Assembly (NCBI GenBank): GCA_964019415.1
Contig: OZ025875.1
Coordinates: 6,063,806-6,127,805, forward strand
Direction: 5' to 3'
DNA from: Ianthella basta
Taxonomy: Eukaryota; Porifera; Demospongiae; Verongiida; Ianthellidae
Length of the DNA: 64,000 bases
Positions 11,974 through 55,885 of this stretch are shown here, one piece after another; position 1 is the stretch's first letter, and each line of letters starts with the position of its first letter. Under the pieces are notes generated by a model. It was not told the origin of the DNA. It did not search any database and worked only from the letters and a program-made list of their open reading frames with translations. Made by a program: the position numbers and the translations under genes.

Positions 11974-13250
11974 GTGGCTATTTCTGGAGACGGCAAGGGT
12001 TCATACTGTATACCCCTTTCAGGGTTAGCGAGCATCCCAGTCTTCTGTATATGCATGGTAAGGAAATGTGTGGCTGCTATTTAAGCATTTACCTATGGTA
12101 GCTTTAAATAGGTCTGAGTGCATGTCTAGGAAGTCACGTGCTTGCATCCGTTTACACTAGTCAGGGCTCACAACAAATTTTAGACCTTTCAGCAGCTTCA
12201 GCTACCTTCATCAGTAAATGGTATTCAAGAAAGCACACTATCACACAAGTGCTTTCTTGAGCAGTTTCTTCTGCCACTTATATATACTGATGAAAGCTGC
12301 CAAAAGTCTAAAATATTTGAGAACCCTGGCTAGCATAAACAAATCTAAGCATTTTATTACAGTACCTATTTTTCATATACCTCTTCGTTACATTATTGAA
12401 CAATGCATGGCTATTCCTATGCATACAAAAATGCACATGCTCTGCTGACAATACATGATAATGTGGGATAATTTTTCTATTAAAATAACATAAAATGTGA
12501 ATGTGTGCAAGCTTTCGAACTGTGCATATGCTGATTGATTCCTTATGTTGCTTGCTCCTTCTCCACTTTTCCCTGTCATTCATCATTGCCACCATTTCCA
12601 TGGCAGCTGCTACTTCTTAGCTATATATATTTGAGATGCTACGTACAGGTGTGTCGCTGTTGATGTATGTGCAGTATATATCCTGCAATTCCTGACTTGG
12701 TCACTCCTGGCAGTGGACCTGTATAAAATTATGTCCTGGAATGGCTTGTCCTACTTCCAACAATCCCAATACACAATGCCTTTCCCAATTTCTATTGAAG
12801 AATTACTGAATGACTATTATAGCATTGTTTTTTTTTTTTACCCATATAGGACACTCCTGAAGCTTCACAATACGATACATGTGGAAACTTATTCTTCTTT
12901 TCAAGTTCATTTGTAGTGCCTTTCCTCAGTAGAAAAGAAGATGACAAGTTCAGTTACATGTAGATATAATTGGGCCCAGGGTATATGGCGCAAGAAGAGC
13001 CATTATACTTTGCCCATCACAAGAAATGCCATAAACGTGCATGCATTGCAATTGATTGGTAACAGTTACTAAAGTTTGATAGTCTAAAACAGCTACATGT
13101 ATCCCACATGTGCATGCATGAAAGTGGAGTGCACCACTGTAGCTATAGAGTCGCATCAGTAGCTTGCACACTTAAGTTGCAGACTGACTAGACAGCACAT
13201 TAGCAAGTTGGCCTTTGGAAGTTTGGTGTTGAGCACACATACATGGCAGC
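11974..13250. repeat. 5' flank of first receptor, duplicated at 16388-18250
   Basis: Long blocks recur upstream of the receptor at 15350. Shared words include TTTAGACCTTTCAGCAG-type, CTGCAATTCCTGACTTGG and GCAAGAAGAGCCATTATAC. The receptors and their upstream DNA were therefore copied together. No separate gene is seen in it. Confidence 0.75.
12177..12315. repeat. Foldback repeat with hammerhead-like arms
   Basis: The arms are inverted. On the minus strand (12218 down to 12177) the order is TTTA, CTGATGA, a GTAGC/GCTGC stem, GAAA, GGTC, TAAA, which is the layout of a type I hammerhead ribozyme. On the plus strand 12287-12314 repeats CTGATGA...GTCTAAAAT in decayed form. A related copy is at 16591-16740. 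Whether either arm can still cleave is unknown. Confidence 0.45.
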
Positions 13251-16468: not shown

Positions 16469-16590
16469 TAAGGAAATGGGCAGCTGCTATTTAAGCATTT
16501 TCCTACGGTACATTTGAATAGGTCTGAGTGCATGTCTAGGAAGTCACACATGCTTGGATTCGTTTGCACTAGCCAGGGATCACAACAAAT

Positions 16591-16740
16591 TAAATCTTAG
16601 ATGTTTCAGCAGCTTCGGCTACCTTTATCAGAAATGGTCTACAAGAAAGTCCTCAAGCACTCTAGTGCTTTCTTGAGCATGCAGTTTCTTTTGTCTCTTA
16701 TACTGATGAAGGTAGATTAAAGCTGCCGAAGGTCTAAAAT
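16591..16740. repeat. Foldback repeat with hammerhead-like arms, second copy
   Basis: Related to 12177-12315. The plus strand reads CTGATGAAGGTAG ... GCTGCCGAAGGTC then TAAAAT, with the GAAA core changed to CGAA. The inner arms CAAGAAAG and CTTTCTTG also pair. Confidence 0.45.
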
Positions 16741-18544
16741 ATTTGAGAACCCTGGCTAGCGTGAACAAATCTAAGCATTTTATTACCTATTTTTATATAT
16801 CTCTTTGTTACATGTATTGAGCAATGCACAGCAATACAAAAATGCACATTGTTGACAATATTATGGGATAATTTATCTTACTATAATGCACCGATTCTCT
16901 GTTTGTTTGTTTGTCACTGTAAAAATCTGTCCCGCTCAAGGGGCCGCCGCGAAATTCTCCATACCAATTAGGGGCATCCTGGGCCATGTTCTTTGAGGCT
17001 GGCACTCCCCAAGTTGCCCTGCTGCAGAAGATCGCAGCACTGTCTTTGGCCTCTGTGGGCTGATCGGCCATTTTTTCTATGTCATGCAGTGCTTAGTGTG
17101 CATACCGTTCCGCCGCTAGACTGTGATGCACATCCGGTTGGTAATCTAATTATGCACCCCTCAACTGCACACCTTAGCACCTCAGCCAGCTCATATGCAT
17201 GTTACACATTGTTTGCACAGCACCCCTCACTCCTGCACTTCCTGAGCCAAGCTCAACAGAATCAATCCAAAGTTTCCCTTGCTAGCTAAGTGCTCAACCT
17301 TACTATATAAGATACCGAACAATTTGCTACTTACATAAGGTACAGTTACACTGTAGTATCAAAATTTTGCTTATGACGCATTTTGCCATTGCACTTTCCA
17401 TTACTCCTTACCCATTATCTACTTGGTGCCCAGTCCATGAACATGCTGGTGCATGGCTAGCTGGGGCATTGCCAGCTGGCATCCAAACAGCCGGCGCATG
17501 CCAAGCACACAGAGAGACCCGCTCGAAGGGTGGGTCTGTCCGCTAGTCTAAATAATTAACATAAGATTAATGTTCTGACATTCATCGTTGCCACCATTTC
17601 CACAGCAGATGCGACTTCTTAGCTGTAATGTGAGATGCTATGTACAGGTGTGTCGCTGATGAATATATGTAGCATACATCCTGCAATTCCTGACTTGGTC
17701 ACTCCTGGCAGTGGACCTGTATATGTCTTGGAATGGCTTGTCCTACTTCCCACAATCCCAATACACAATGCTTTTCCCAATTTCTATTGAAAAATTACTG
17801 AATGACTATTATAGCATTGTCTTTAACCATATAGGACACTCCTAAAGCTTCACAATACAATACATATGGAAACCTATTCTTCTTTCCAAGTTCATTTGTA
17901 GTGCCTTTCCTCATGATCAGTAGAAAAGAAGATGACAAGTTCAGTTATATGTAGATGGAATTGGGCCTATTTCACCCCAGGTAAATGTACTAACAAAGGT
18001 ATCCATATACCTTTGTTAGTACATGGTGCAAGAAGAGCCATTATACTTTGCCCATCAAACAAAATGCCATAAACGTGCTAGCATTGATTGGCAGCAGTTA
18101 CTAAGATTTGATAGTCTAAGACAGCTACATGTATCCCACATGTGTATGCATGAAAGTGGAGTGCACCACTGTAGCTATAGAGCCACATCAGTAGCATGCA
18201 CAGCTAAGTTGCAGACTGACTAGACAGCACATTAGCAAGTTGGCCTTAGTGAGACACATGCTAAGTTAAATGCATTTTGCAAGAGAATGGAAAGTGCTCT
18301 ATGGCTTGCATATACAATTGACCCAGTAATAGCATTCAGGGTAGCTGTCTAAACCTTGGGTTGATCATGAGCATTGTTTCTTGCATAAATTTTATAAGAT
18401 TTGAACTCAGCACAATTTTATCTCTGTATAATATGTATTATACTGCATACTTGGACATCATGGTTTCTCCAATGCTTATATGTGATACACTGCTGTGTGC
18501 ATCTCTGTTCAAAGCTGTGTGGACAATGGAAATTTGAATTTCAT
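16741..18544. other. Gene-free stretch with dispersed (TTTG)n-led repeat
   Basis: At 16905-17070 a (TTTG)3 run leads into TGTCCCGCTCAAGGGGCCGC and a CpG-rich tail. A similarly ordered segment occurs at 31183-31330. From about 17570 to 18250 the DNA duplicates the 12540-13200 flank. No gene is recognised. Confidence 0.45.
17985..18024. repeat. Perfect 18-bp palindrome
   Basis: Arms 17985-18002 and 18007-18024 are exact reverse complements with spacer CCAT. The duplicated counterpart near 12980 lacks the whole palindrome, so it arose or was inserted after that duplication. Confidence 0.9.
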
Positions 18545-21411: not shown

Positions 21412-22398
21412 TCAAAAAGTGCCAGTGCCAGGTGTCTGATTTTCAGCAACAAGTCGCATGGTTAACGGATTTGATATTTCATGACGTTTGCACAATGAAA
21501 ACTGCCCACAAGTGACAATCTTCTTGGCCTCTTCACGCACCGGCTTCAGAAAGGCCATGATGATGATGGGAGTGGGGAGGAGGGAGACAGCAATGCAGGC
21601 ATAGGTGAGATACGCTCCTGTTGCTGCTGAGTTGATACTCAATAGGGCTGGAAGGATTTGACCCGCAAAGTTGATGCTGCCCCCCACTACGAGGAAGAGG
21701 GAGAACTTGGCAAACCCCTTTCTAAACTTAGTCCCTTCACTGACACTATTCATTCTTACATAGCAGAGACAGGCAATGGGTACAATGATACTGACTGCCA
21801 GTGGCGTGAGCCCTCCGAAAATGGTCCATGTAGCGAAGAATGTGTATCGAGCTTGAGGGAAGATGGTGCTGTTGGTATCAGGGAAACAGGCCACACCGTG
21901 GACAAACTGTACTTCATAGACATAAGGAAGAATGATGTAGAGACTTATGATCATGGGTGCAAACCAAAGGATAAAAGTGACAGCTGCAGCAGTGCACCAG
22001 CTGATGGTCTTCTTGCCAAACCTCACACCCCCCAATGCAGAGAGGGCGAATGCTGCCAAGCTCCACAGTCTTACAGCCGCTCCTGTGGCAAAACCCCACA
22101 GGTACACTCTACACAGGTACCGCGGTAAGGGAGAATGTGTCCTCACTGCTATAAGGACAGTAGCAGTGCACAAAGCTGACACCAAACTCACTGCCACAAG
22201 AAGTCCTGCCAGCAGAAGGTTGATGAGGAAGAGGCGAACTGGTCTGGGAACTGCAGTGGCCATCAGGAGTGCTAAGATGGTGAATACAATCAGCAGACTG
22301 CCCACAACTATTGCCATAGCCAATAGTATAGAGTAAGCCATGAAGCTGGGGCTGTTGAGGGAAGTGTCATTCTCTGGTGGAAATGTGGAATTGTCCAT
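21412..22398 (-). CDS. 7TM class A-like receptor, MDNSTFPPEN subfamily
   Basis: 328 residues with all seven helices intact and starting directly at MDNSTFPPENDTS. TM2-ECL1 is VSLVSALCTATVLIAVRTHS, and TM3 has the unusual ALSALGGVRFGKK. ECL2 is GVACFPDTNSTIFPQ with an extra glycosylation site. The C-tail is unlike the other subfamilies (QFSLCKRHEISNPLTMRLVA then ENQTPGTGTF). It was gained because coding now runs across a rearranged 3' flank. The DNA from about 21429 to 22470 is duplicated at 25076-26117. Confidence 0.85.
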   Translation of the reverse strand: MDNSTFPPENDTSLNSPSFMAYSILLAMAIVVGSLLIVFTILALLMATAVPRPVRLFLINLLLAGLLVAVSLVSALCTATVLIAVRTHSPLPRYLCRVYLWGFATGAAVRLWSLAAFALSALGGVRFGKKTISWCTAAAVTFILWFAPMIISLYIILPYVYEVQFVHGVACFPDTNSTIFPQARYTFFATWTIFGGLTPLAVSIIVPIACLCYVRMNSVSEGTKFRKGFAKFSLFLVVGGSINFAGQILPALLSINSAATGAYLTYACIAVSLLPTPIIIMAFLKPVREEAKKIVTCGQFSLCKRHEISNPLTMRLVAENQTPGTGTF

Positions 22399-22470
22399 AC
22401 TTGTACATGAGGGAGTCCACTAAACTGTGTACACTTTGAAGGCTATGTAGCTATACCAGTTAGCCACTTC
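21429..22470. repeat. Duplicated receptor segment, copy 1
   Basis: Nearly identical to 25076-26117. The left border is the word GGTGTCTGATTTTCAG, and the right border is near CCAGTTAGCCA. It contains the whole receptor minus its last few codons. Confidence 0.85.
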
Positions 22471-22476
22471 CTTATA
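22471..22476 (-). promoter_or_regulatory. TATA element
   Basis: TATAAG on the minus strand, 73-78 bp before the ATG at 22398. Confidence 0.5.
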
Positions 22477-23012: not shown

Positions 23013-24548
23013 TGGATTGGGCCCCATTGTGGTTGGGTGCACCCTTCGACGTATGGTGGCAAAAGTGGCAAGCAGAGCTGTCCTGGAGCGTATGGGATCG
23101 CTATTGGCACCACTCCAGCTAGGATTCGGAACGTCCTTGGGAGCAGAAGCAGCAGTCCACTCCGCAAGGGTCTATCTCCACCACCTCCTCCCGGACCATG
23201 TCCTCCTCAAGCTCGACTTTAGGAATGCATTCAATAGCATTAGAAGAGATAAGGTGTTGGAAGCAGCAAGGGAAAGCATTCCTGAGCTTTTCCACTATGT
23301 CTTCTCCTGTTACTCCGCCCCATCTACCCTTTTCCTGCATGGGACAACCCTGCAATCTGCTGAGGGGGTTCAGCAAGGAGACCCTCTGGGACCCCTCCTC
23401 TTTTGCCTGACCATTCACCCTCTCATCACACCCCTGAAATCAGAATTCAGGGTTTTCTATCTGGATGATGGCACAATTGGAGGTGCCGAGGAAGAGGTGT
23501 TACGAGACCTACAGTACATTGAATGCCAGGCTGCCCACTTAGGTCTATTTCTGAACCATGCGAAGACAGAGCTCATTTGTGAAGAACCAGCTGGTGATCT
23601 TTTGCTGCAAGCAGCTCCAGACTTGTGTCAGGTGAAGCCTGAGAATGCCACCCTCCTTGGGGCCCCCATTGGTCAGCTGAAGTCCATCAATTCAGCAATT
23701 TCTAGTCGGCTGCAGGCCCTAAAGACCATGGGTTCCAGGTTGCCCCACTTCCACAGGCAGGATGCGCTTCTGCTGCTTAGGCAATCCTTCGCCATTCCTA
23801 AGATCCTGTACACCCTCAGAACTGCCCCATGCTGCATTTCACCGGTACTGGCCTCTTTTGACCAGGAGCTACGATCGATCCTCACTAGCATCTTGAATGT
23901 CAGCCTGGACGACCACTCAGCCTGGATACAAGCCACTCTTCCTGTTGGGGCTGGAGGTTTGGGGATCCGAAGGGCCACCCAGCTTGCCCCCTCCGCCTTT
24001 TTGGCATCTGCTGCTGGGTGCAAGGATCTTCTGAACCAGATCATCCCTAACAGGTTGAAAGGCACGCCCCCCCCCCATACACCCTGGAGGTTCGTAATGA
24101 GTGCAGTCTCCCATATGGTGTTGTCAACAAGAGAGGCAGGAGCGGTGGCGGCTGCAGCCGAGGCCAAGAAGACTGTAAAATACGCGGAGCTGGCTAGGAC
24201 TCACCATGTGGCCCCACTGGCGGTCGAGACATCTGGTGTGTTTGGCTCAGGGGCTCGCGAATTCTTCACTGAACTGGGCAGGCGGTTGATTCGAGTCACA
24301 GGGGATTTGATGTCCCGGTGCCACATGATCCAGCAGATATCAGTTGCCCTACAAAGAGGCAACGCTGCCTCGGTGCTGGGCACCATGGAACAATGTAATT
24401 TACTTGACAATTAATTACTATTCAGACATTGCATAGGTGGTGCTGTGCACTGCCTATTAATTACTTTGACTCTGTTATTAGTCATCACATCATTACAACA
24501 TTCTTTCCATCCTTAATTAATTTTGCCATAATAAAAAAAAAAAAAAAA
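23013..24548 (+). mobile_element. 5'-truncated LINE with poly-A tail and target-site duplication
   Basis: The insertion splits a receptor 3' module that is whole at 21085 (GCAAGCTGATAGACACACAAC). AGACACACA stands at 23004-23012 and again at 24548-24556, giving an 8-9 bp target-site duplication. The 3' end is a run of about 16 A. The element starts inside its coding region, as expected for incomplete target-primed reverse transcription. The RT family is related to R2-like non-LTR elements of marine invertebrates by my recollection, to be confirmed. Confidence 0.85.
23017..24414 (+). CDS. Non-LTR reverse transcriptase, truncated at the 5' end
   Basis: A continuous 465-codon frame without an ATG at its start (TTG at 23017), because the element is 5'-truncated. 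RT motifs are GPIVVGCTLRRMVAKVAS at the start, LKLDFRNAFNS (motif A), GVQQGDPLGPLLFC (motif B) and FYLDDGTIGG (motif C, both catalytic Asp present). The thumb follows, then GGLGIRRATQLAPSAFLASA. After RLKGTPPP the sequence jumps to VLSTREAGAVAAAAEAKK and the C-terminal block ETSGVFG...LGRRL...QRGNAASVLGTM. In relatives I remember, a region with a CCHC finger and restriction-like endonuclease lies between these parts, so an internal deletion seems likely. The frame is open, hence young, but the element is probably not autonomous. Confidence 0.8.
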   Translation: MGPIVVGCTLRRMVAKVASRAVLERMGSLLAPLQLGFGTSLGAEAAVHSARVYLHHLLPDHVLLKLDFRNAFNSIRRDKVLEAARESIPELFHYVFSCYSAPSTLFLHGTTLQSAEGVQQGDPLGPLLFCLTIHPLITPLKSEFRVFYLDDGTIGGAEEEVLRDLQYIECQAAHLGLFLNHAKTELICEEPAGDLLLQAAPDLCQVKPENATLLGAPIGQLKSINSAISSRLQALKTMGSRLPHFHRQDALLLLRQSFAIPKILYTLRTAPCCISPVLASFDQELRSILTSILNVSLDDHSAWIQATLPVGAGGLGIRRATQLAPSAFLASAAGCKDLLNQIIPNRLKGTPPPHTPWRFVMSAVSHMVLSTREAGAVAAAAEAKKTVKYAELARTHHVAPLAVETSGVFGSGAREFFTELGRRLIRVTGDLMSRCHMIQQISVALQRGNAASVLGTMEQCNLLDN

Positions 24549-24644: not shown

Positions 24645-25075
24645 TGACCCCCGCTACAAGGAAGAGGGATAACTTAGCCATCCCTTTCTGGTATTGTGTC
24701 CCATTGGTGACAGTGGTTCTTCCTTATGTAATATAGGTTGACAATGGGTACAATGATACTGACTGCCAGTGGTGTGAGCCTTCCAAAGATGGTCCATGTA
24801 GCGAAGAATGACTAACGAGCTTGTTGAATAATGGCACTGTTAGTATCAGGGAAACATGCAGGCCACACCGTGGACAAACTGGGCTTCATAGACGTAAGGA
24901 AGTGTGACATGGAGGCTTAAAATCATGGGCACAAACCACAAGCTAGATGATGACTGCAGCTGTGCACCAGCTAATGGTCTTCTTGCCAAACCTCACTATG
25001 GTCAAAATTGAAAATGAAAATGCTGCCAGATTCCATAGTCTTGCCACCACTCCTGTGGCAAAGCCCCACAGGTAC
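24645..25075 (-). pseudogene. 7TM receptor relic (TM3 to TM6)
   Basis: The minus-strand DNA matches TM3-TM6 of the family (GCCACACCGTGGACAAACTG in ECL2) but has several indels and stops, for instance around the TM5-TM6 loop. It is cut at 25076, where the duplicated segment shared with 21429 begins. Its last bases are now read as the C-tail of the next receptor. Confidence 0.8.
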
Positions 25076-26045
25076 AAGGTGTCTGATTTTCAGCAACAAG
25101 TCGCATGGTTAACGGATTTGATATTTCATGACGTTTGCACAATGAAAACTGCCCACAAGTGACAATCTTCTTGGCCTCTTCACGCACCGGCTTCAGAAAG
25201 GCCATGATGATGATGGGAGTGGGGAGGAGGGAGACAGCAATGCAGGCATAGGTGAGATACGCTCCTGTTGCTGCTGAGTTGATACTCAATAGGGCTGGAA
25301 GGATTTGACCCGCAAAGTTGATGCTGCCCCCCACTACGAGGAAGAGGGAGAACTTGGCAAACCCCTTTCTGTATTTAGTCCCTTCACTGACACTATTCAT
25401 TCTTATATAGCAGAGACAGACAATGGGTACAATGATACTGACTGCCAGTGGTGTGAGCCCTCTGAAAATGGTCCATGTAGCAAAGAAGGTGAATCGAGCT
25501 TGAGGGAAGATGGTGCTGCTGGTATTAGGGAAACAGGCCACACCGTGGACAAACTGTACTTCATAGACATAAGGAAGAATGATGTAGAGACTTATGATCA
25601 TGGGTGCAAACCAAAGGATAAAAGTGACAGCTGCAGCAGTGCACCAGCTGATGGTCTTCTTGCCAAACCTCACACCCCCCAGTACAGATAGGGCAAATGC
25701 TGCCAGGCTCCACAGTCTTACAACCGCTCCTGTGGCAAATCCCCACAGGTACACTCTACACAGGTACCGCGGTAAGGGAGAATGTGTCCTCACTGCTATA
25801 AGAACAGTAGCTGTGCACGCAACTAATATTGAAATCACTGCCACAAGAAGCCCCGCCAGCAGAAGGTTGATGAGGAAGAGGCGAACTGGTCTGGGAACTG
25901 CAGTGGCCATCAGGAGTGCTAAGATGGTGAATACAATCAGCAGACTGCCCACAACTATTGCCATAGCCAATAGTATAGAGTAAGCCATGAAGCTGGGGCT
26001 GTTGAGGGAAGTGTCATTCTCTGGTGGAAATGTGGAATTGTCCAT
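25002..26045 (-). CDS. 7TM class A-like receptor with chimeric C-tail
   Basis: 347 residues, a near copy of the receptor at 21412. Differences include VISILVACTA in TM2-ECL1 and GVACFPNTSSTIFPQARF in ECL2. The frame passes the duplication border and continues into the neighbouring receptor relic read out of phase, so the tail ends CTCGALPQEWWQDYGIWQHF plus a few residues instead of GTGTF. Stable expression of that tail is uncertain. The start is MDNSTFPPENDTS. Confidence 0.85.
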   Translation of the reverse strand: MDNSTFPPENDTSLNSPSFMAYSILLAMAIVVGSLLIVFTILALLMATAVPRPVRLFLINLLLAGLLVAVISILVACTATVLIAVRTHSPLPRYLCRVYLWGFATGAVVRLWSLAAFALSVLGGVRFGKKTISWCTAAAVTFILWFAPMIISLYIILPYVYEVQFVHGVACFPNTSSTIFPQARFTFFATWTIFRGLTPLAVSIIVPIVCLCYIRMNSVSEGTKYRKGFAKFSLFLVVGGSINFAGQILPALLSINSAATGAYLTYACIAVSLLPTPIIIMAFLKPVREEAKKIVTCGQFSLCKRHEISNPLTMRLVAENQTPCTCGALPQEWWQDYGIWQHFHFQF

Positions 26046-26117
26046 ACTTGTACATAAGAGAGTCCACTAAACTGTGTACACTTTGAAGGCTATGTAGCTA
26101 TACCAGTTAGCCAATTC
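25076..26117. repeat. Duplicated receptor segment, copy 2
   Basis: Counterpart of 21429-22470. Its left edge abuts the receptor relic at 24645-25075. Confidence 0.85.
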
Positions 26118-26123
26118 TTTATA
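26117..26123 (-). promoter_or_regulatory. TATA element
   Basis: TATAAAG on the minus strand, 72-78 bp before the ATG at 26045. Confidence 0.5.
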
Positions 26124-27280
26124 CTTCCTCCTGTGTGATATGTACGCATGTACACCACATAGACCTACTCCCTCCAATCCTCAATGGTAGCCAGATTTCC
26201 TCTCACCTAGTCCAAATACACTTCACCATTCAGTCCTTTCATGATGCCAAGGACCATTCAGTAGGTAAAGTGACTAAATGAAACAGTGTCAATGATAATT
26301 TATTTATGCATGTACTGCAGAACTCTTCCCGCTGAGTTGTCTGAATACATATAATGGAAGCATTGAAGTGCACACTGAATGGTGATTCGTGCATAATGCA
26401 ATTTATAATATAAATAACACAGAAGTCATGCATGCAATGCAAAATCACTCTGATCACACCTAGAGTCTTCCAGTGGCATGCAGGCTCATTTAACAGTACA
26501 GTGATGTCCAAGGAGTTGATGAGTTTGAGGGAAGCTCATTGATCAATGCACTAAGTTGTACAATCATGCACATTAATAATACAGTACAAACATTAGCAAT
26601 ATTTAAAGACTGATAACATTATAATATTATGACTGCATGCAGGAAACATGACAATGAAAGCATAACTGTTACATGTTGTTCAACTGTCCGTATTTTTACA
26701 TAATAATCATCTTATACTCTCCAATGCACCTCCCACCTTGTGATCACAGTGTTGAGACTTGAAGAGGACATATCTGAAGCAGACATGCATTTTAGCTTGT
26801 TACCTTCCTTGCACAACCATTCACCATTAGCTACAGGTGCAGTTATAACTCTGGCAATTATACATTCTAGAGGAGGACTTTAAAGAGAGGTTCCTGAATA
26901 TGCAGAATACGTCTATAGTACTGGCACCAGCATTTGTCATGGTTTCTTGCTTCATACAACTTCAGAATATGTATACTCTATGCTACGTCTCAACAAGGAC
27001 GTCACACTCAGTTTTATATTATGCATGCTGCCAGAAAACCAGCATATATAAAATACAGGCAGGTTCCCTGTTCACGCCTAACAATCCTGTATAATGTACA
27101 CATGAACAATTGTTATGATATTATTTGTATGTACGTACATTACTAAGCTGGTCTCAGACTGAGTGCTGACTGAGTGTGTATATACGGGCGTCCACTGCAC
27201 TGCACCCAACTAGTGGCTGGTCAACTCTTTGTGGTATGTCCCACATCACCTCACATCCTCATTGTTCTGGAATTCCGGTT
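26124..27280. other. Gene-free stretch
   Basis: No coding region, RNA gene or known repeat is recognised. Confidence 0.45.
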
Positions 27281-27520
27281 TGAACCATTTGGTCCTTGGA
27301 CAGTAAAGAGGAATACCACCACCACCACACAGTGCAAGTTATACAATATGTGTACCCAGTATATGCACCAGCGCAGCAGGAAAAACAGTGCCAGTGCAAG
27401 TTACATAGGGTCACCACATCCAATGCAAGTAGAGTATTTGCATTAGATGCTGGAAGGATGAACACCACCAGTGCAGGTTCTGATGGTAGCCACCACATGT
27501 GCCAGTAGGTTTTGGCACAT
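27280..27520. repeat. CACCAC-rich dispersed repeat, second copy
   Basis: It shares ordered words with 5120-5470 (CAGTGCAAGTTACATAGGGT, AGTAGAGTATTTG, TGCTGGAAGG, CACCACCAGTGCA). The class is unknown. Confidence 0.5.
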
Positions 27521-27589
27521 GATATTATAGAGGCTCGTTGCTACGGTTTTCAAATGATCAGTAGTGATAATGAGCAATCACGTAGCAGA

Positions 27590-27773
27590 CAGATGGAATA
27601 ATTGCAAAAATGTACGACGTTTCGACCACGAAGGTCTTCGTCAGGTACAAAACTAAAATAGACAAGCAAGAACCCATTGAATTGAACCCAGGACCAGTGC
27701 ATGCAGTAGTGGTTCAGGACTAAATGTGCAAGTACAGTGTTTACGCCATTGGATGGTAGAAAAGGACCACTAC
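27590..27773 (-). mobile_element. SINE-like element with pol III B-box and hammerhead ribozyme
   Basis: On the minus strand a B-box-like GGTTCAATTC (27679-27688, in the context CTGGTCCTGGGTTCAATTC) is followed about 40 nt later by a complete hammerhead motif (27611-27649). A clear A-box is not seen. The element abuts the point at 27774 where a receptor gene is cut off in TM3. SINE-like elements that join a pol III promoter and a hammerhead are known from schistosomes (Sm-alpha). Borders and family are inferred. Confidence 0.45.
27611..27649 (-). ncRNA. Hammerhead ribozyme, minimal type I
   Basis: Reading 5' to 3' on the minus strand: TGTAC (stem I), CTGACGA (the invariant CUGANGA core, 27638-27644), a GACC/GGTC stem II with loop TTCGT (27624-27636), GAAA, CGTC with the GUC cleavage triplet, then GTACA closing stem I (27611-27615). 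All conserved core positions are present. Stem III is just ACGU, which is self-complementary, as in the dimer-forming hammerheads of Penelope-like elements and retrozymes. Confidence 0.75.
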
Positions 27774-28074
27774 CAAGGTACACTCTACACAGGTACCGCG
27801 GTAAGGGTGAATGGGTGCTCACTGCTATAAGGATGGTAGCTGTGCACACCATAAACATCGAACTCACTGCCACGAGAAGCCCTGCCAGCAGAAGGTTGAT
27901 GAGGAAGAGGCGAACTGGTCTGGGAACTGCAGTGGCCATCAGGAGCGCTAAGATGGTGAATACAATCAGCAGACTGCCCACAACTATTGCCATAGCCAGC
28001 AGTATAGAGTAGGCCATGAAGCTGGGGCTGTTGAGGGAAGTGTCATTCTCTGGTGGAAATGTGGAATTGTCCAT
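27774..28074 (-). pseudogene. 7TM receptor 5' fragment (N-terminus to start of TM3)
   Basis: MDNSTFPPENDTSLNS through TM1 and TM2 to YLCRVYL is uninterrupted and very close to the receptors at 21412 and 25002. Homology stops abruptly at 27774 at the SINE-like element, and the frame continues into unrelated DNA to about 27550. The remaining five helices are missing downstream, so this is a truncated gene. Its TM1-TM2 block is unspoiled, which suggests a recent event. Confidence 0.85.
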
Positions 28075-28151
28075 ACTCGGTGCACGCATGTAGTCCACTA
28101 TGCTGTGTACAGCCTCAAATAGCCTGTCTGTTCCTTCCATTATCAGTTTTT

Positions 28152-28157
28152 ACTATA
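28152..28157 (-). promoter_or_regulatory. TATA-like element
   Basis: TATAGT, 78-83 bp before the MDNS start at 28074. Its position matches that of the intact paralogues. Confidence 0.3.
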
Positions 28158-28683
28158 ATTATATTAAAAGTGAAAACAGCTTTCTTGCTGTAATAGCTCG
28201 CTCTATCTACATTCAGATCTATTGCCTATGCATAAATATACGACATTGGGCATACACCTACTGCATGTATGTACCTAAAAGGGAGATATTCTCACCACGC
28301 CATTTTTGATTCACCTATAACAATAAACACATACATAAATGTGCTTGTGATGAAGACATGCATTGACTGCATGTTGTTTGTCTTTTGGAAAGAACTGTAC
28401 ATGGAATTTTCAACTGCAAAAGCTCTATAGGAGGCATATTGAGTAGTCTCACAAAATGACTTGTAGACGAAAATGGCCACTGTCACCGTACCACAATAAC
28501 CTGCACTTGTTGAATAGCTGTAAAAGACCGAATGTTTGAACAGCTGCTATGCTACAGCATGCACATAGTATTTTCAGTTCAAATCATCTACAAGCCCTAT
28601 AATGCTATGCTATAATTGCAATAATGTTGCGCTACATGCAAAGACGTGCAGTACAGAAACATTATTGGGGTTAACATATATAC
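28158..28683. other. Gene-free stretch
   Basis: Nothing recognisable is seen. Confidence 0.4.
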
Positions 28684-29649
28684 TTAGATCTTTGTGTCCA
28701 TTGATTGAATGCCATCGGTGCTTATGGTACTTTCCAATGGCCTTGTGTGCACCTGTCCACAAGTCACAATCTTTTTGACCTGCTCTTGCGCTGGCTTCAG
28801 GAAGGCCATGATGATGATGGGAGTGGGAAGGAGGGAGACTACTGCAGAGCCGTAGCTGAGATACACTCCTGGTGCTGCTGAGTTGAAACTAAATAGGGCT
28901 GGAAGGATTTGACCTGCAAAGTTGATGAAGCCCCCCACTACAAGGAAGAGGGAGAGCTTGGCCATTGCCTTTCTGTACTGTGTCCCTTCAGTGACAACAT
29001 TCTTGCTGATATAACAGAGGCAGACAATGGGCACAATGATGCTGACAAGGACAGGTGTGAGCCCTCCAAAGATGGTCCATGTAGCTAAGAAAACATAACG
29101 AGCTTGACGAATAATGGTACTGTTAGTATCAGGGAAACAGGCCACACCGTGGACAAACTGGGCTTCATAGACATAAGGAAGTATGACATAGAGGCTTAAA
29201 ATCATGGGCACAAGCCACAGGATAGGAATGATGACTGCAGCTGTACACCAGTTAATGGTCTTCTTGCCGAACCTCACTATGGCCAGAATTGAAAATGAAA
29301 ATGCTGCCAGACTCCACAGTCTTGCTATCACTCCTGTGGCAAAACTCCACAGGTACATTCTGCATAGGTACCGTGGTGAGGGGGAATGTGTGCTCACTGC
29401 TATAAGGACAGTAGCAGTGCACATCATAAACATCAAACTCACTGCCACGAGAAGCCCTGCCAGCAGAAGGTTGATGAGGAACAGGCGAACTAACCTGGGA
29501 ATTGATGTGGCCATCAGGAGTGCTAAGATAGTGAATACAATCAGGGCACCGGCCACAGCTGTTGTCAAAGCTAACAGAATGGAGTAGGCCATGAAGCCGG
29601 GGCTGTTGAGGGAAGTGTCAATTGCTGATGAGGTGGTAGAGTTGTTCAT
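28684..29649 (-). CDS. 7TM class A-like receptor with ancestral-type DTKI tail
   Basis: 321 residues, intact. The N-terminus is MNNSTTSSAIDTSLNS with a single clear sequon. TM1 ends ATSIPRLVRLF, with L where most have P. TM3 is TGVIARLWSLAAFSFSILA. ECL2 is GVACFPDTNSTII. The loop between TM5 and TM6 is CYISKNVVTEGTQYRKAMA. The C-tail is CGQVHTRPLESTISTDGIQS then MDTKI. The DNA for this tail survives as non-coding sequence behind A- and C-type genes, which makes this tail a likely ancestral form. Confidence 0.85.
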   Translation of the reverse strand: MNNSTTSSAIDTSLNSPGFMAYSILLALTTAVAGALIVFTILALLMATSIPRLVRLFLINLLLAGLLVAVSLMFMMCTATVLIAVSTHSPSPRYLCRMYLWSFATGVIARLWSLAAFSFSILAIVRFGKKTINWCTAAVIIPILWLVPMILSLYVILPYVYEAQFVHGVACFPDTNSTIIRQARYVFLATWTIFGGLTPVLVSIIVPIVCLCYISKNVVTEGTQYRKAMAKLSLFLVVGGFINFAGQILPALFSFNSAAPGVYLSYGSAVVSLLPTPIIIMAFLKPAQEQVKKIVTCGQVHTRPLESTISTDGIQSMDTKI

Positions 29650-34573: not shown

Positions 34574-36140
34574 TAGTGACAACAGTACTAGAAGGTGATC
34601 TGGAGATGATGAAAGAGGAAGTAAGAAGTGTAAGGAGGTTGAAGATGAGAAAGGCACCTGGCATATGTGGGATAGTGTCAGAAATGCTAAAAGCAGGTGG
34701 TGAAGTGATGGTAGAGTGGCACGTGGATGGTGAAGATATTCAATCTGGTGTAGAGAGAGGGGGTAGTCCCAGAAGATTGGATAAAGGCAGTAATCATGCC
34801 TATTTTCAAGAAGGGCAGCAAACTAGATTGTGCAAACTACAGGGGAATAAGTCTATTGAGCGTTGTTGGCAAGGTGTTTGGGCGGATACTGAATGAGAGG
34901 GTGAAGGCAATAACAGATGTTAAAGTGATGGATGAGCAAGGAGGTTTCAGGGCTGGAAGAGGTTGTAATGATCAAATCTTTGTGGTGAAGCAAATTGTGG
35001 AGAAGACAACTGAGAAGAATAAGAAGACTTACATGGCTTTTTTGGATCTGGAGAAAGCTTACGACAATAGGGAGAAAGGGGGAGAAGATGTGGGTAGTGT
35101 TGGACAAGTATGGGATAAAGGGGAAGTTGCTTAGAGCTATTCAGGCATTGTATGTGGGCAGTAAGGCATGTGTAAAAGTTAGAGAATTAACATCAGAGGA
35201 GTTCGAGGTACGCAAGGGAGTGAGGCAGGGACGTACGCTGTCTCCACGGCTTTTTAATCTGTTTATGGACAATGTTATGAGGGAGGCAAGAGGACGTTTT
35301 GTGGGTGAGGTACAACTATCTACTGGTGAGGTTGGTGTACTACTGTTTGCAGACAACATGGTGGTGATGGCAAATTCTGAAGAGGGGCTGCAACATAACT
35401 TAAAGACAGTCAGTGACATGCTGAACAAATGGGAATTGAAAGTAAACTGGAAGAAGACTAAAGTGATGAGGGTAGCAAGGGACAGGGAAGAGTTTGAGGT
35501 GAAAATAGGAGATGAGGTCATTGAGCAGGTGGACACAATGAAGTACCTGGGAGTGATGGTTAGTAATGATGGAAGTATGGAGAAGGAAATAGAGGCTAGG
35601 ATAGGAAATGCAACACGAGTGATTGGAGGGATGAATGATGCCATCTTGAGAAGGAAGGAATTGAGTCAAAGTACCAAGATCAAAGTAGTGAATGCCACAA
35701 TGATGCCAGTGCTGATGTACGGGTGTGAGACGTGGAGCCTAACAAAGAAGCAACAATCAAAGGTACAAGCCTCACAAATGAATGTGCTAAGAGGATTGAA
35801 GGTGTGAATAGATTGGACAGAGTAAGGAATGCAGATATTAGGGAGAGGTTGAATCAAGAAGGTGTTTTAGATCTGGTGAAAAGGAGACAGGAGAGTTGGA
35901 AGGGCAGACTAGAATAAATGAGCTTTGAGAAGACAACGAAGAAAGTGTTTGTTGGAGAGATGGAGGGGAAAAGAGGAAGACCACGCTTAAGATGGATTGA
36001 CAATTTTAATTAACTATATGATAGCTACCTATTCTTTATGCTAACTCACTGTCTGCACTGTTTTAGTGTAAGAGGGATGACCTCCAGCATTGGAGATAAA
36101 TCCACTTTTGTGATTGATTGATTGATTGATTGATTGATTC
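34574..36140 (+). mobile_element. Broken LINE with (GATT)n 3' tail
   Basis: Translations in shifting frames give RLKMRKAPG, then FKKGSKLDCANYRGISLLS, GFRAGRGCNDQIF, YMAFLDLEKAYD (motif A), GVRQGRTLSPRLFNLFMD (motif B), LLFADNMVVMANS (motif C, FADD changed to FADN), MKYLGVMVSNDGS and YGCETWSLTKKQQ. These are the RT palm and thumb of a CR1/RTE/L2-like LINE. The endonuclease end is missing. Frames break near 34780, 35070 and 35800. The 3' end is (GATT)6 at 36113-36139. In sister spacers the uninterrupted site reads TTTGTTATGAATTGATGC up to CCAATCTGAATGCC, so about 28 bp of target were lost and no target duplication is evident. Confidence 0.85.
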
Positions 36141-38277: not shown

Positions 38278-38545
38278 AAGAGAACCTTGCAACTGATTTC
38301 AGAATGGTTCGCCAAAATGACAAATGAAAAATGGCAAATGGTAAATGGCAAATGGCATGACACCATAGTACAGTGTCTTAGTGTGATTGTCCTTAGTGGT
38401 GCATGTGAACGAGATGACATGGTGTGACCTAGGCCATTTGCTATTTACCATAAAATTTGATACTAAGTCTTACATTTGCCAATCAGAATATTGCACAGAA
38501 GGGTATGTTTTGTGTAGTAGTTACGATATTATCACATTCACAAGT

Positions 38546-40065: not shown

Positions 40066-40335
40066 CACCATACCGTACCATACCCATACCATGCCATACC
40101 ATACCATACAATACAATACCCATACCATGCCATACAATACAATACAATACAATACCCATACCATGCCATACAATACAATACAATACCCATACCATGCCAT
40201 ACAATACAATACAATACCCATACCATGCCATACAATACAATACAATACAATACAATACCCATAGCATGCCATACAATACAATACAATACAATACAATACA
40301 ATACATTACAATACATTACAATACCCATACCATAC
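40066..40335. repeat. Pentanucleotide satellite (copy 1)
   Basis: An array of CATAC, AATAC and CATGC units, with a superimposed longer period marked by CCCATACCATGCCATAC. It is open in several frames on both strands only because the unit is 5 bp. Confidence 0.9.
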
Positions 40336-40701
40336 CAAATATACAAGTTTTCATATAGCTAGTAAAGGTTCTTAGGGCACGAGAAGTGCAAAAATATGCA
40401 GAATAGTGTTGGCATGAGTGCAATATACTAATGGAAGTATATACAACTTGCTGATATCATAAGTACATACTGTATATTCCATATGTATAATACACTGTGG
40501 TGGATATATGTGTATACCACCTGTTATGGTAAAGTGGACAGAACTTTGTCAACATTCAATAACTCAAACACAGAACTGCTAAAGAGTGAGAGGTACAGGG
40601 ACATGTACACAGTTGGTGAAATATCTGCATGCACACAGGTAAGTCTATTCCTTCTTGATATTTGTGTCTATTGCTTGACTACTGTCAGTGCTTGTGATTC
40701 T
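40336..40701. repeat. B' gene 3' module
   Basis: Matches 31500-31903 and 55516-55885 almost base for base. No separate gene. Confidence 0.8.
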
Positions 40702-53507: not shown

Positions 53508-53775
53508 AAGAGAACCTTGCAACTGATTTCAGAATGGTTCGCCAAAATGACAAATGAAAAATGGCAAATGGTAAATGGCAAATGGCATGACACCATAGTA
53601 CAGTGTCTTAGTGTGATTGTCCTTAGTGGTGCATGTGAACGAGATGACATGGTGTGACCTAGACCATTTGCTATTTACCATAAAATTTGATACTAAGTCT
53701 TACATTTGCCAATCAGAATATTGCACAGAAGGGTATGTTTTGTGCAGTAGTTACGATATTATCACATTCACCAGT

Positions 53776-55302: not shown

Positions 55303-55515
55303 ACCATACCGTACCATACCCATACCATGCCATACCATACAATACAATACAATACCCATACCATGCCATACAATACAATACAATACCCATACCATGCCAT
55401 ACAATACAATACAATACCCATACCATGCCATACCATACAATACAATACCCATACCTGCCATACAATACAATACAATACAATACAATACATTACAATACAT
55501 TACAATACCCATACC
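55303..55515. repeat. Pentanucleotide satellite (copy 2)
   Basis: Same units as 40066-40335 but shorter, with one decayed CATACCTGCC unit. Confidence 0.9.
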
Positions 55516-55885
55516 ATACCAAATATACAAGTTTTCATATAGCTAGTAAAGGTTCTTAGGGCATGAGAAGTGCAAAAATATGCAGAATAGTGTTGGCATG
55601 AGTGCAATATACTAATGGAAGTATATACAACTTGCTGATATCATGAGTACATACTGTATATTCCATATGTATAATACACTGTGGTGGATATGTGTGTATA
55701 CCACCTGTTATGGTAAAGTGGACAGAACTTTGTCAACATTCAATAACTCAAACACAGAACTGCTAAAGAGTGAGAGGTACAGGGACATGTACGCAGTTGG
55801 TGAAATAGCTGCATGCACACAGGTAAGTCTATTCCTTCTTGATATTTGTGTCTATTGCTTGACTACTGTCAGTGCTTGTGATTCT
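55516..55885. repeat. B' gene 3' module (copy 2)
   Basis: Matches 40336-40701. Confidence 0.8.

What the first reader, a model, noticed from the sequence alone, without database searches (positions are those of the whole stretch)
27611..27649. Complete hammerhead ribozyme in a SINE-like element beside a truncated receptor gene
Every conserved core position is present on the minus strand: CUGANGA, a GACC/GGTC stem II, GAAA, a GUC cleavage triplet, and a TGTAC/GTACA stem I. The ACGU stem III is self-complementary, which suggests action as a dimer. About 40 nt upstream is a pol III B-box-like GGTTCAATTC. The combination recalls schistosome Sm-alpha and Penelope/retrozyme hammerheads but has an unfamiliar body. 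Its edge coincides with the break in a receptor gene at 27774.
Basis: partly seen in the sequence, partly recalled or inferred. Interest (0 to 1): 0.75.

Follow-up and report, generated by a model that had tools for sequence, protein, structure and literature searches.

The report
Penelope retroelement end with hammerhead ribozyme
The ribozyme is real but belongs to a common kind of jumping gene (a Penelope-like element) of which this genome holds well over a thousand pieces; comparing those pieces shows that nearly every two-armed insertion examined has one long and one short end, a clue to how these elements insert themselves.

Summary
The hammerhead at 27611-27649 (minus strand) is complete and not a chance match: the 209-Mb genome holds 251 matches within 3 mismatches, this one included, against 0 for the reversed pattern. 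It is not part of a SINE. It is the 5' end of a Penelope-like element (PLE) pseudo-LTR fragment, about 27519-27653, inserted into an unrelated repeat ('X'); the 'B-box' falls on that junction. The receptor break at 27775/27776 touches X, not the ribozyme element. The minimal, dimer-type hammerhead of PLEs is a known class.

The new part concerns its relatives. In head-to-head PLE insertions one arm ends at an inner site and the other 32-37 nt further on (the 'tail'), with target duplications outside. By sequence, 28 of 40 pairs (eight families) could be called, all short/long. By coordinates, taking outermost arms, 32 of 32 (F7) and 29 of 32 (F2) insertions agree. This fits the two adjacent reverse-transcription start sites reported in vitro for one PLE, and suggests that one insertion normally uses one of each.

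A ninth family, F4, is a non-coding element of retrozyme type. It shows the same kind of ends in 3 of 3 fetched insertions, which supports the published suggestion that PLEs mobilise animal retrozymes.

The parts
27616..27644 (-). Hammerhead core CTGACGA..GAAACGTC; predicted cleavage 3' of GUC, between 27616 and 27615
   Evidence: Sequence; pattern counts
27611..27649 (-). Hammerhead with stem I TGTAC/GTACA
   Evidence: Sequence; RNA fold
27519..27653 (-). F1 PLE pseudo-LTR arm: from the foot of stem I to the long (tailed) 3' end, about 27519-27521
   Evidence: Arm ends in the F1 copies; alignment 27520-27644 to the F1 reference, 95%
27520..27554 (-). 35-nt 'tail' beyond the inner (short) end site after ..TGATCA at 27555
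   Evidence: Comparison of arm ends in F1 copies
27582..27587 (-). 5' strand (TGCTAC) of a predicted hairpin around the inner end site
   Evidence: Complementarity at this position in the reference sequences of 8 families; window letters
27539..27544 (-). 3' strand (GTAGCA) of the same hairpin, inside the tail
27654..27683 (-). Unassigned ~30 nt between repeat X and the pLTR arm; its first letters and the last of X form the B-box-like GGTTCAATTC
27684..27770 (-). Upstream part of host repeat X (the supposed SINE body)
   Evidence: 84-91% matches in 11 places other than the window and L049; flanks
27315..27518 (-). Downstream part of the same repeat X
   Evidence: Follows the upstream part within a few tens of nt in L053-L058, L060, L061 (L059 and L062 not printed, L063 does not fit)
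27776..28140 (-). 5' half of a split receptor gene; the ORF starts at 28140
   Evidence: Self-comparison
24801..25076 (-). Further part of a receptor gene whose break is at the same homologous place; AGGTACA at both breaks
25077..27775 (-). 2.7-kb inserted block: a full receptor copy (96.6% to 21430-22476), other sequence, and repeat X with the PLE arm

Best explanation
The motif is the hammerhead of a Penelope-like element pseudo-LTR. The window holds one single-armed, non-coding fragment of family F1, inserted into repeat X. Shown by sequence: the arm starts at the foot of stem I, ends at the tailed site, and has many relatives, a large part of them in head-to-head pairs with target duplications. 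Other families with the same anatomy flank reverse-transcriptase or GIY-YIG reading frames. Inferred: the PLE protein cuts both target strands; each end primes cDNA on PLE RNA, one at the inner start site and one at the outer; the two cDNAs run to the RNA 5' end at the hammerhead and are joined head to head. The ribozyme probably cleaves tandem transcripts as a dimer, because stem III is only AC/GU. A related copy (L049) carries about 90 nt of repeat X with it, which suggests read-through transcription.
For: 251 matches, control 0. The arm is found in 60 matches (40 of 227 candidates scored), many as back-to-back inverted pairs. Of 6 reading frames beside same-family hammerheads, RVT_1 is over its cut-off in L065 and L071 and just below it in L064, GIY-YIG is over it in L069, and two have no hit. 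55 GIY-YIG matches genome-wide, about 13 minus-then-plus pairs within 3 kb. Repeat of score 9 or more at both ends in 31 of 40 pairs, against 35 of 598 swapped-flank controls; 28 called, all short/long. Coordinates, outermost arms: F7 32 of 32, F2 29 of 32. Repeat X on both sides. L049 copy 93% over 27520-27765. Published: two adjacent RT start sites define the tail, and both strands are cut and extended (PMC11167929, main text); inverted pLTRs with a tail on one of them (PMC3846280, passages).
Against: No autonomous F1 copy was found; RT or endonuclease was seen with families F2, F3, F6 and F7 only. The window copy has no second arm and no clear target duplication (10-18 nt of X seem lost), so its own insertion event is not fully readable. 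The monomer fold ties up part of the core. No cleavage, transcript or circular-RNA data. The extra A next to stem II is shared by the PLE-type families here; its effect was not tested.
Confidence: 0.92

Rival explanations
1. A pol III SINE with a hammerhead, like schistosome Sm-alpha.
For: B-box-like GGTTCAATTC and an A-box-like stretch upstream (my reading); a second copy (L049) shares 27520-27765 at 93%.
Against: The head is one half of repeat X, which resumes beyond the insertion; the 11 other X copies lack the ribozyme at that spot, and apart from the window and L049 the listed arm matches lack X. ARAGORN finds no tRNA at 25000-29000.
Confidence: 0.04
2. The palindromes are DNA-transposon MITEs whose terminal inverted repeats happen to contain a hammerhead.
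For: Inverted arms facing outward, with target duplications.
Confidence: 0.02
3. The unequal arms come from one cDNA that folds back at its 3' end and copies itself, stopping before the last ~35 nt, rather than from two RT starts.
For: PMC3846280 proposes self-priming for inverted PLE structures (passages); the junction lies in self-complementary hammerhead stems.
Against: The short end coincides with a fixed site in each family, as one of two RT start sites does in vitro (PMC11167929). Within-pair F1 arms are not significantly more alike than arms of different pairs (permutation p 0.135), which decides nothing.
Confidence: 0.2

Closest known systems
Small PLE-associated hammerheads that cleave as dimers (Cervera and de la Pena 2014; Lunse, Weinberg and Breaker 2017)
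   Same: Minimal type I core, almost no stem III, found in PLE pseudo-LTRs in thousands of copies
   Different: Nothing essential. Those two papers were not held (content recalled, titles seen in reference lists); passages of other papers that describe the class were read
Penelope/Poseidon PLEs with inverted pLTRs and tail (PMC3846280, PMC11167929)
   Same: Head-to-head pLTRs, ~31-40 nt tail on one arm, 8-10 bp TSD, RT and GIY-YIG, hammerhead at the pLTR
   Different: There the tail is called optional; here the two-armed insertions that could be called have one tailed and one untailed end, in eight families (plus F4), with 3 of 32 F2 insertions as exceptions
Animal non-LTR retrozymes (PMC7229834)
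   Same: F4 has a canonical type I hammerhead (Rfam RF00163) and a stretch repeated 364 nt apart, without long reading frames
   Different: F4 copies carry PLE-like insertion ends, which the passages read do not report; the window element itself is not a retrozyme

Membership tests
PLE-type minimal hammerhead | CUGANGA..GAAA core, stems I and II, GUC-type site | tested here: met
   stems I and II also in the fold
PLE-type minimal hammerhead | Stem III reduced, palindromic, dimer needed | tested here: met
   ACGT between GAA and C; dimer action itself not tested
PLE-type minimal hammerhead | Self-cleavage | not testable with these tools
   Needs in vitro transcription
Penelope-like element (family F1 of the window) | Head-to-head pLTR arms, tail on one arm, short TSD | tested here: met
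   11 F1 pairs called; the window copy itself is single-armed without a clear TSD
Penelope-like element (family F1 of the window) | RT plus GIY-YIG reading frame in autonomous copies | tested here: inconclusive
   RT in F2 and F7 (and below cut-off in F3), GIY-YIG in F6; none identified for F1
tRNA-type SINE / Sm-alpha | Pol III head that belongs to the mobile unit | tested here: not met
   Head is host repeat X, present on both sides
Animal retrozyme (family F4, not the window element) | Canonical type I hammerhead, non-coding, short tandem unit | tested here: met
   RF00163 in L075-L077; 97-nt stretch repeated 364 nt apart in L075; no ORF of 120 aa or more inside the three insertions
Animal retrozyme (family F4, not the window element) | Circular RNA in tissues | not testable with these tools
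   No RNA data
Animal retrozyme (window element) | Canonical stem III and tandem unit | tested here: not met
   Minimal stem III, single arm

The most novel reading that the evidence does not exclude
PLE insertion is an obligatorily asymmetric two-ended reaction. One target strand is extended from the inner RT start site and the other from the outer, on either side of a conserved RNA hairpin strand, and the products meet head to head at the hammerhead. Animal retrozymes (F4) are inserted by this same machinery.
Probability: 0.6. Interest if true: 0.7.

Novelty: new member of a known kind. Interest (0 to 1): 0.45.

Why it matters
The window element itself is ordinary. Its relatives matter because how PLEs make the second end of an insertion is unsettled, and the tail has been described as optional. 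A near-invariant short/long rule turns this into a sharp prediction for the existing in vitro PLE system: paired RT starts at different sites. The F4 insertions give physical evidence for a link between retrozymes and PLEs that, in the passages read, rests on co-occurrence, shared type I hammerheads and tandem copies. Rfam's type I model also missed the PLE-type hammerheads in every stretch tried here, so annotations may under-count them.

Tried and rejected
Rfam on the window and on 27000-28400: no hit. tRNA head: none. A second arm, or repeats at the ends of the 2.7-kb receptor block other than receptor paralogy: none at E<=0.01. F1 arms within a pair versus between pairs: mean identity 0.904 vs 0.897, p 0.135. 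RF00163 over the whole genome: 18 matches, 13 over the cut-off, but only 73 of 23,027 candidates were scored, so no copy number for F4.

The first TSD scan used a loose cut-off with 110 of 299 false hits in swapped flanks; it was replaced by a score of 9, with 35 of 598. Of the 40 pairs (loci judged duplicates left out first: L003, L004, L007, L013, L023, L045, L068, L078), 9 had no such repeat (L012, L024, L027-F2, L031, L044, L047, L065-F2, L074-F1, L082) and 3 could not be called: L073 and L083 lie in tandem repeats, L065-F8 is at the locus edge. Among the 28 called, L002-F3 has a 9-bp repeat and ends extrapolated beyond the alignment; F5, F6, F8 and F9 rest on one pair each. L024 looks short/short without TSD. 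L065-F2 looks long/long without TSD; it counts as long/short only because a third arm 3.4 kb further is taken as the end.

Hairpin test: taken alone each family is only weakly unusual (7 to 163 of 3000 shuffles as good), the position limits were set, families are partly related, and without position limits 20 to 177 of 1000 shuffles are as good, some tails of other families pair as well, and the best F1 helix is a different one. The support is the repeated position with four different sequences.

Full report
Observation. The minus-strand letters at 27611-27649 form a complete minimal type I hammerhead. The generic motif alone is weak evidence: 2 hits, 0.44 expected. The exact form with up to 3 mismatches is expected 0 times in the window, and the genome of the window (G000, 209 Mb, 96 contigs, organism unnamed) has 121 forward and 130 reverse matches, this one included, against 0 and 0 for the reversed pattern. 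A generic pattern gives 2323+2494 against 1306+1219 for its control. The monomer fold keeps stems I and II but pairs GACG with CGUC across the core. Rfam finds nothing here. In nine fetched loci it finds six type I hammerheads, all of family F4, and none of the PLE-type ones in the other six loci.

What surrounds it. The arm that is repeated in the genome is 27540-27653 within the query, and on inspection reaches 27519-27521. The sequence upstream, 27684-27770, is found in 11 places besides the window and L049. Those copies run on without the ribozyme, and in eight of the nine whose comparison was printed they continue within a few tens of nt into sequence that in the window lies at 27518-27315 (L063 is the exception, L059 and L062 were not printed). 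So the ribozyme element interrupts a repeat X, and the B-box-like GGTTCAATTC is a junction product. L049, 57 kb beyond the window on the same contig, shares 27520-27765 at 93%. It ends at the same tail and begins inside X. I read it as a copy that took along upstream sequence.

The receptor. Two pieces of a receptor gene, 24801-25076 and 27776-28111, break at the same homologous place, with AGGTACA at both breaks. Between them lies a 2.7-kb block with another full receptor copy, 96.6% identical to 21430-22476. No PLE arm of the families tested was found at the block's ends. The ribozyme element is about 90 bp inside it, within X. The two pieces match different paralogues best, so gene conversion or a more complex history is possible. 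The two receptor reading frames submitted have no Pfam match.

The element family. In this genome hammerheads of this class come in several sequence families (F1 = window; F2, F3, F5-F9; names are mine). Many lie as outward-facing pairs, with the ribozyme at the inner end of each arm: 70 of 100 listed F2 arms and 64 of 100 listed F7 arms are in such pairs. Of six reading frames lying beside such hammerheads, RVT_1 is over its cut-off in L065 and L071 and below it in L064 (25.7 of 29.6 bits), GIY-YIG is over it in L069, and L066 and L067 gave no hit. 55 GIY-YIG matches were scored genome-wide. This is Penelope-like element anatomy as described in PMC3846280 (passages read) and PMC11167929 (abstract and main text read).

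The short/long rule. One arm of an insertion stops at an inner site and the other goes 32-37 nt further. I tested this in two ways. All 28 that could be called are short/long (16) or long/short (12), none short/short or long/long: F1 11, F2 5, F3 4, F7 4, and one each in F5, F6, F8 and F9. Many F1 loci were chosen by similarity to a tailed query, so that sample is enriched for tailed arms. By coordinates, without that bias: exact probes for the arm and for two parts of the tail in families F2 and F7, among the first 100 arm places listed for each. Taking the outermost arms of each head-to-head group, F7 gave 32 of 32 unequal; F2 gave 32 of 35, or 29 of 32 after removal of three groups that I take for segmental duplicates from their spacing, the other three short/short, perhaps because of mutated tails. 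The choice of outermost arms matters. With adjacent arms and both probes F2 is 29 of 35, with three short/short and three long/long; with one tail probe and adjacent arms it is 28 of 35 for F2 and 28 of 32 for F7. In F7 the second probe turned three of the four short/short pairs into unequal ones, and the fourth became so through an outer arm. For the two F7 pairs on C15 only one tail probe was listed.

Structure at the ends. The reference sequences of all eight families have a 6-8 nt perfect complement between a stretch 20-29 nt before the inner end and a stretch 7-11 nt inside the tail, in four different sequences (limits and caveats under Tried and rejected). This would put the inner start in the loop of a hairpin and the outer start 3' of it. 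Of 42 F1 arm starts 24 lie 7-10 nt before the ribozyme's first core base, 20 of them at -10 or -9.

Mechanism. PMC11167929 reports that a PLE protein cuts and extends both target strands and that RT begins at two adjacent sites which delimit the tail. The rule found here adds that one insertion normally uses one of each. Inferred, not shown: two cDNAs on one or two RNAs, joined at the RNA 5' end. In that paper ribozyme mutants did not affect insertion in vitro, and the ribozyme cleaved only with protein added, so it more likely serves RNA processing.

Retrozymes. Family F4 has a canonical hammerhead (Rfam), no reading frame of 120 aa or more within its three fetched insertions, and a 97-nt stretch that recurs 364 nt apart in L075. 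The three insertions (L075, L076, L077) are head-to-head with exact direct repeats of 14, 12 and 14 bp at the ends. One arm ends at ..TTTGTTCA or ..AGCAACA while the other runs about 45-54 nt on (read by eye). In L075 and L076 the tail holds GCAATGARCC near its end, as F1 and F8 do. PMC7229834 (abstract, passages and one section read) calls PLEs a strong candidate for mobilising retrozymes, on co-occurrence, shared type I hammerheads and tandem copies; a 2024 review still says LINEs or PLEs (PMC11722881, passages). Three insertions are few.

Is it in print? In the listings (open-licence library, partly capped lists) no title or abstract opening states that exactly one end is tailed or shows PLE ends on retrozymes. 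Beyond the papers named above I read passages of PMC7761336, PMC12910113 and PMC8969392 only; Craig 2021, Lunse 2017 and Cervera 2014 were not held. Prior description cannot be excluded.

Noticed in passing
window 16540-16760: A degenerate head-to-head pair of PLE-type hammerheads (F5-like), an older PLE insertion near a receptor gene.
   Followed up: partly
window 12101-12330: What looks like a second degenerate F5-like head-to-head pair near a paralogous receptor gene, possibly copied together with the gene.
   Followed up: partly
window 23017-24414 (+) and 34995-35807 (+): Reading frames with RVT_1 (Pfam): other retroelements inserted in the receptor cluster.
   Followed up: no
window ~10966-63711, minus strand: A tandem cluster of about 19 related receptor-like genes and fragments; the two frames submitted to Pfam match nothing.
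   Followed up: no
window 38315-38357 and 53545-53587; 40067-40337 and 55303-55521: Similar tandem repeats occur twice about 15 kb apart, a sign of a segmental duplication in the cluster.
   Followed up: no
L075, L076, L077: Canonical type I hammerhead with palindromic stem III ACAGCTGT in a non-coding element of retrozyme type with PLE-like insertion ends.
   Followed up: yes
L053-L063: Repeat X, a dispersed repeat of unknown kind.
   Followed up: partly
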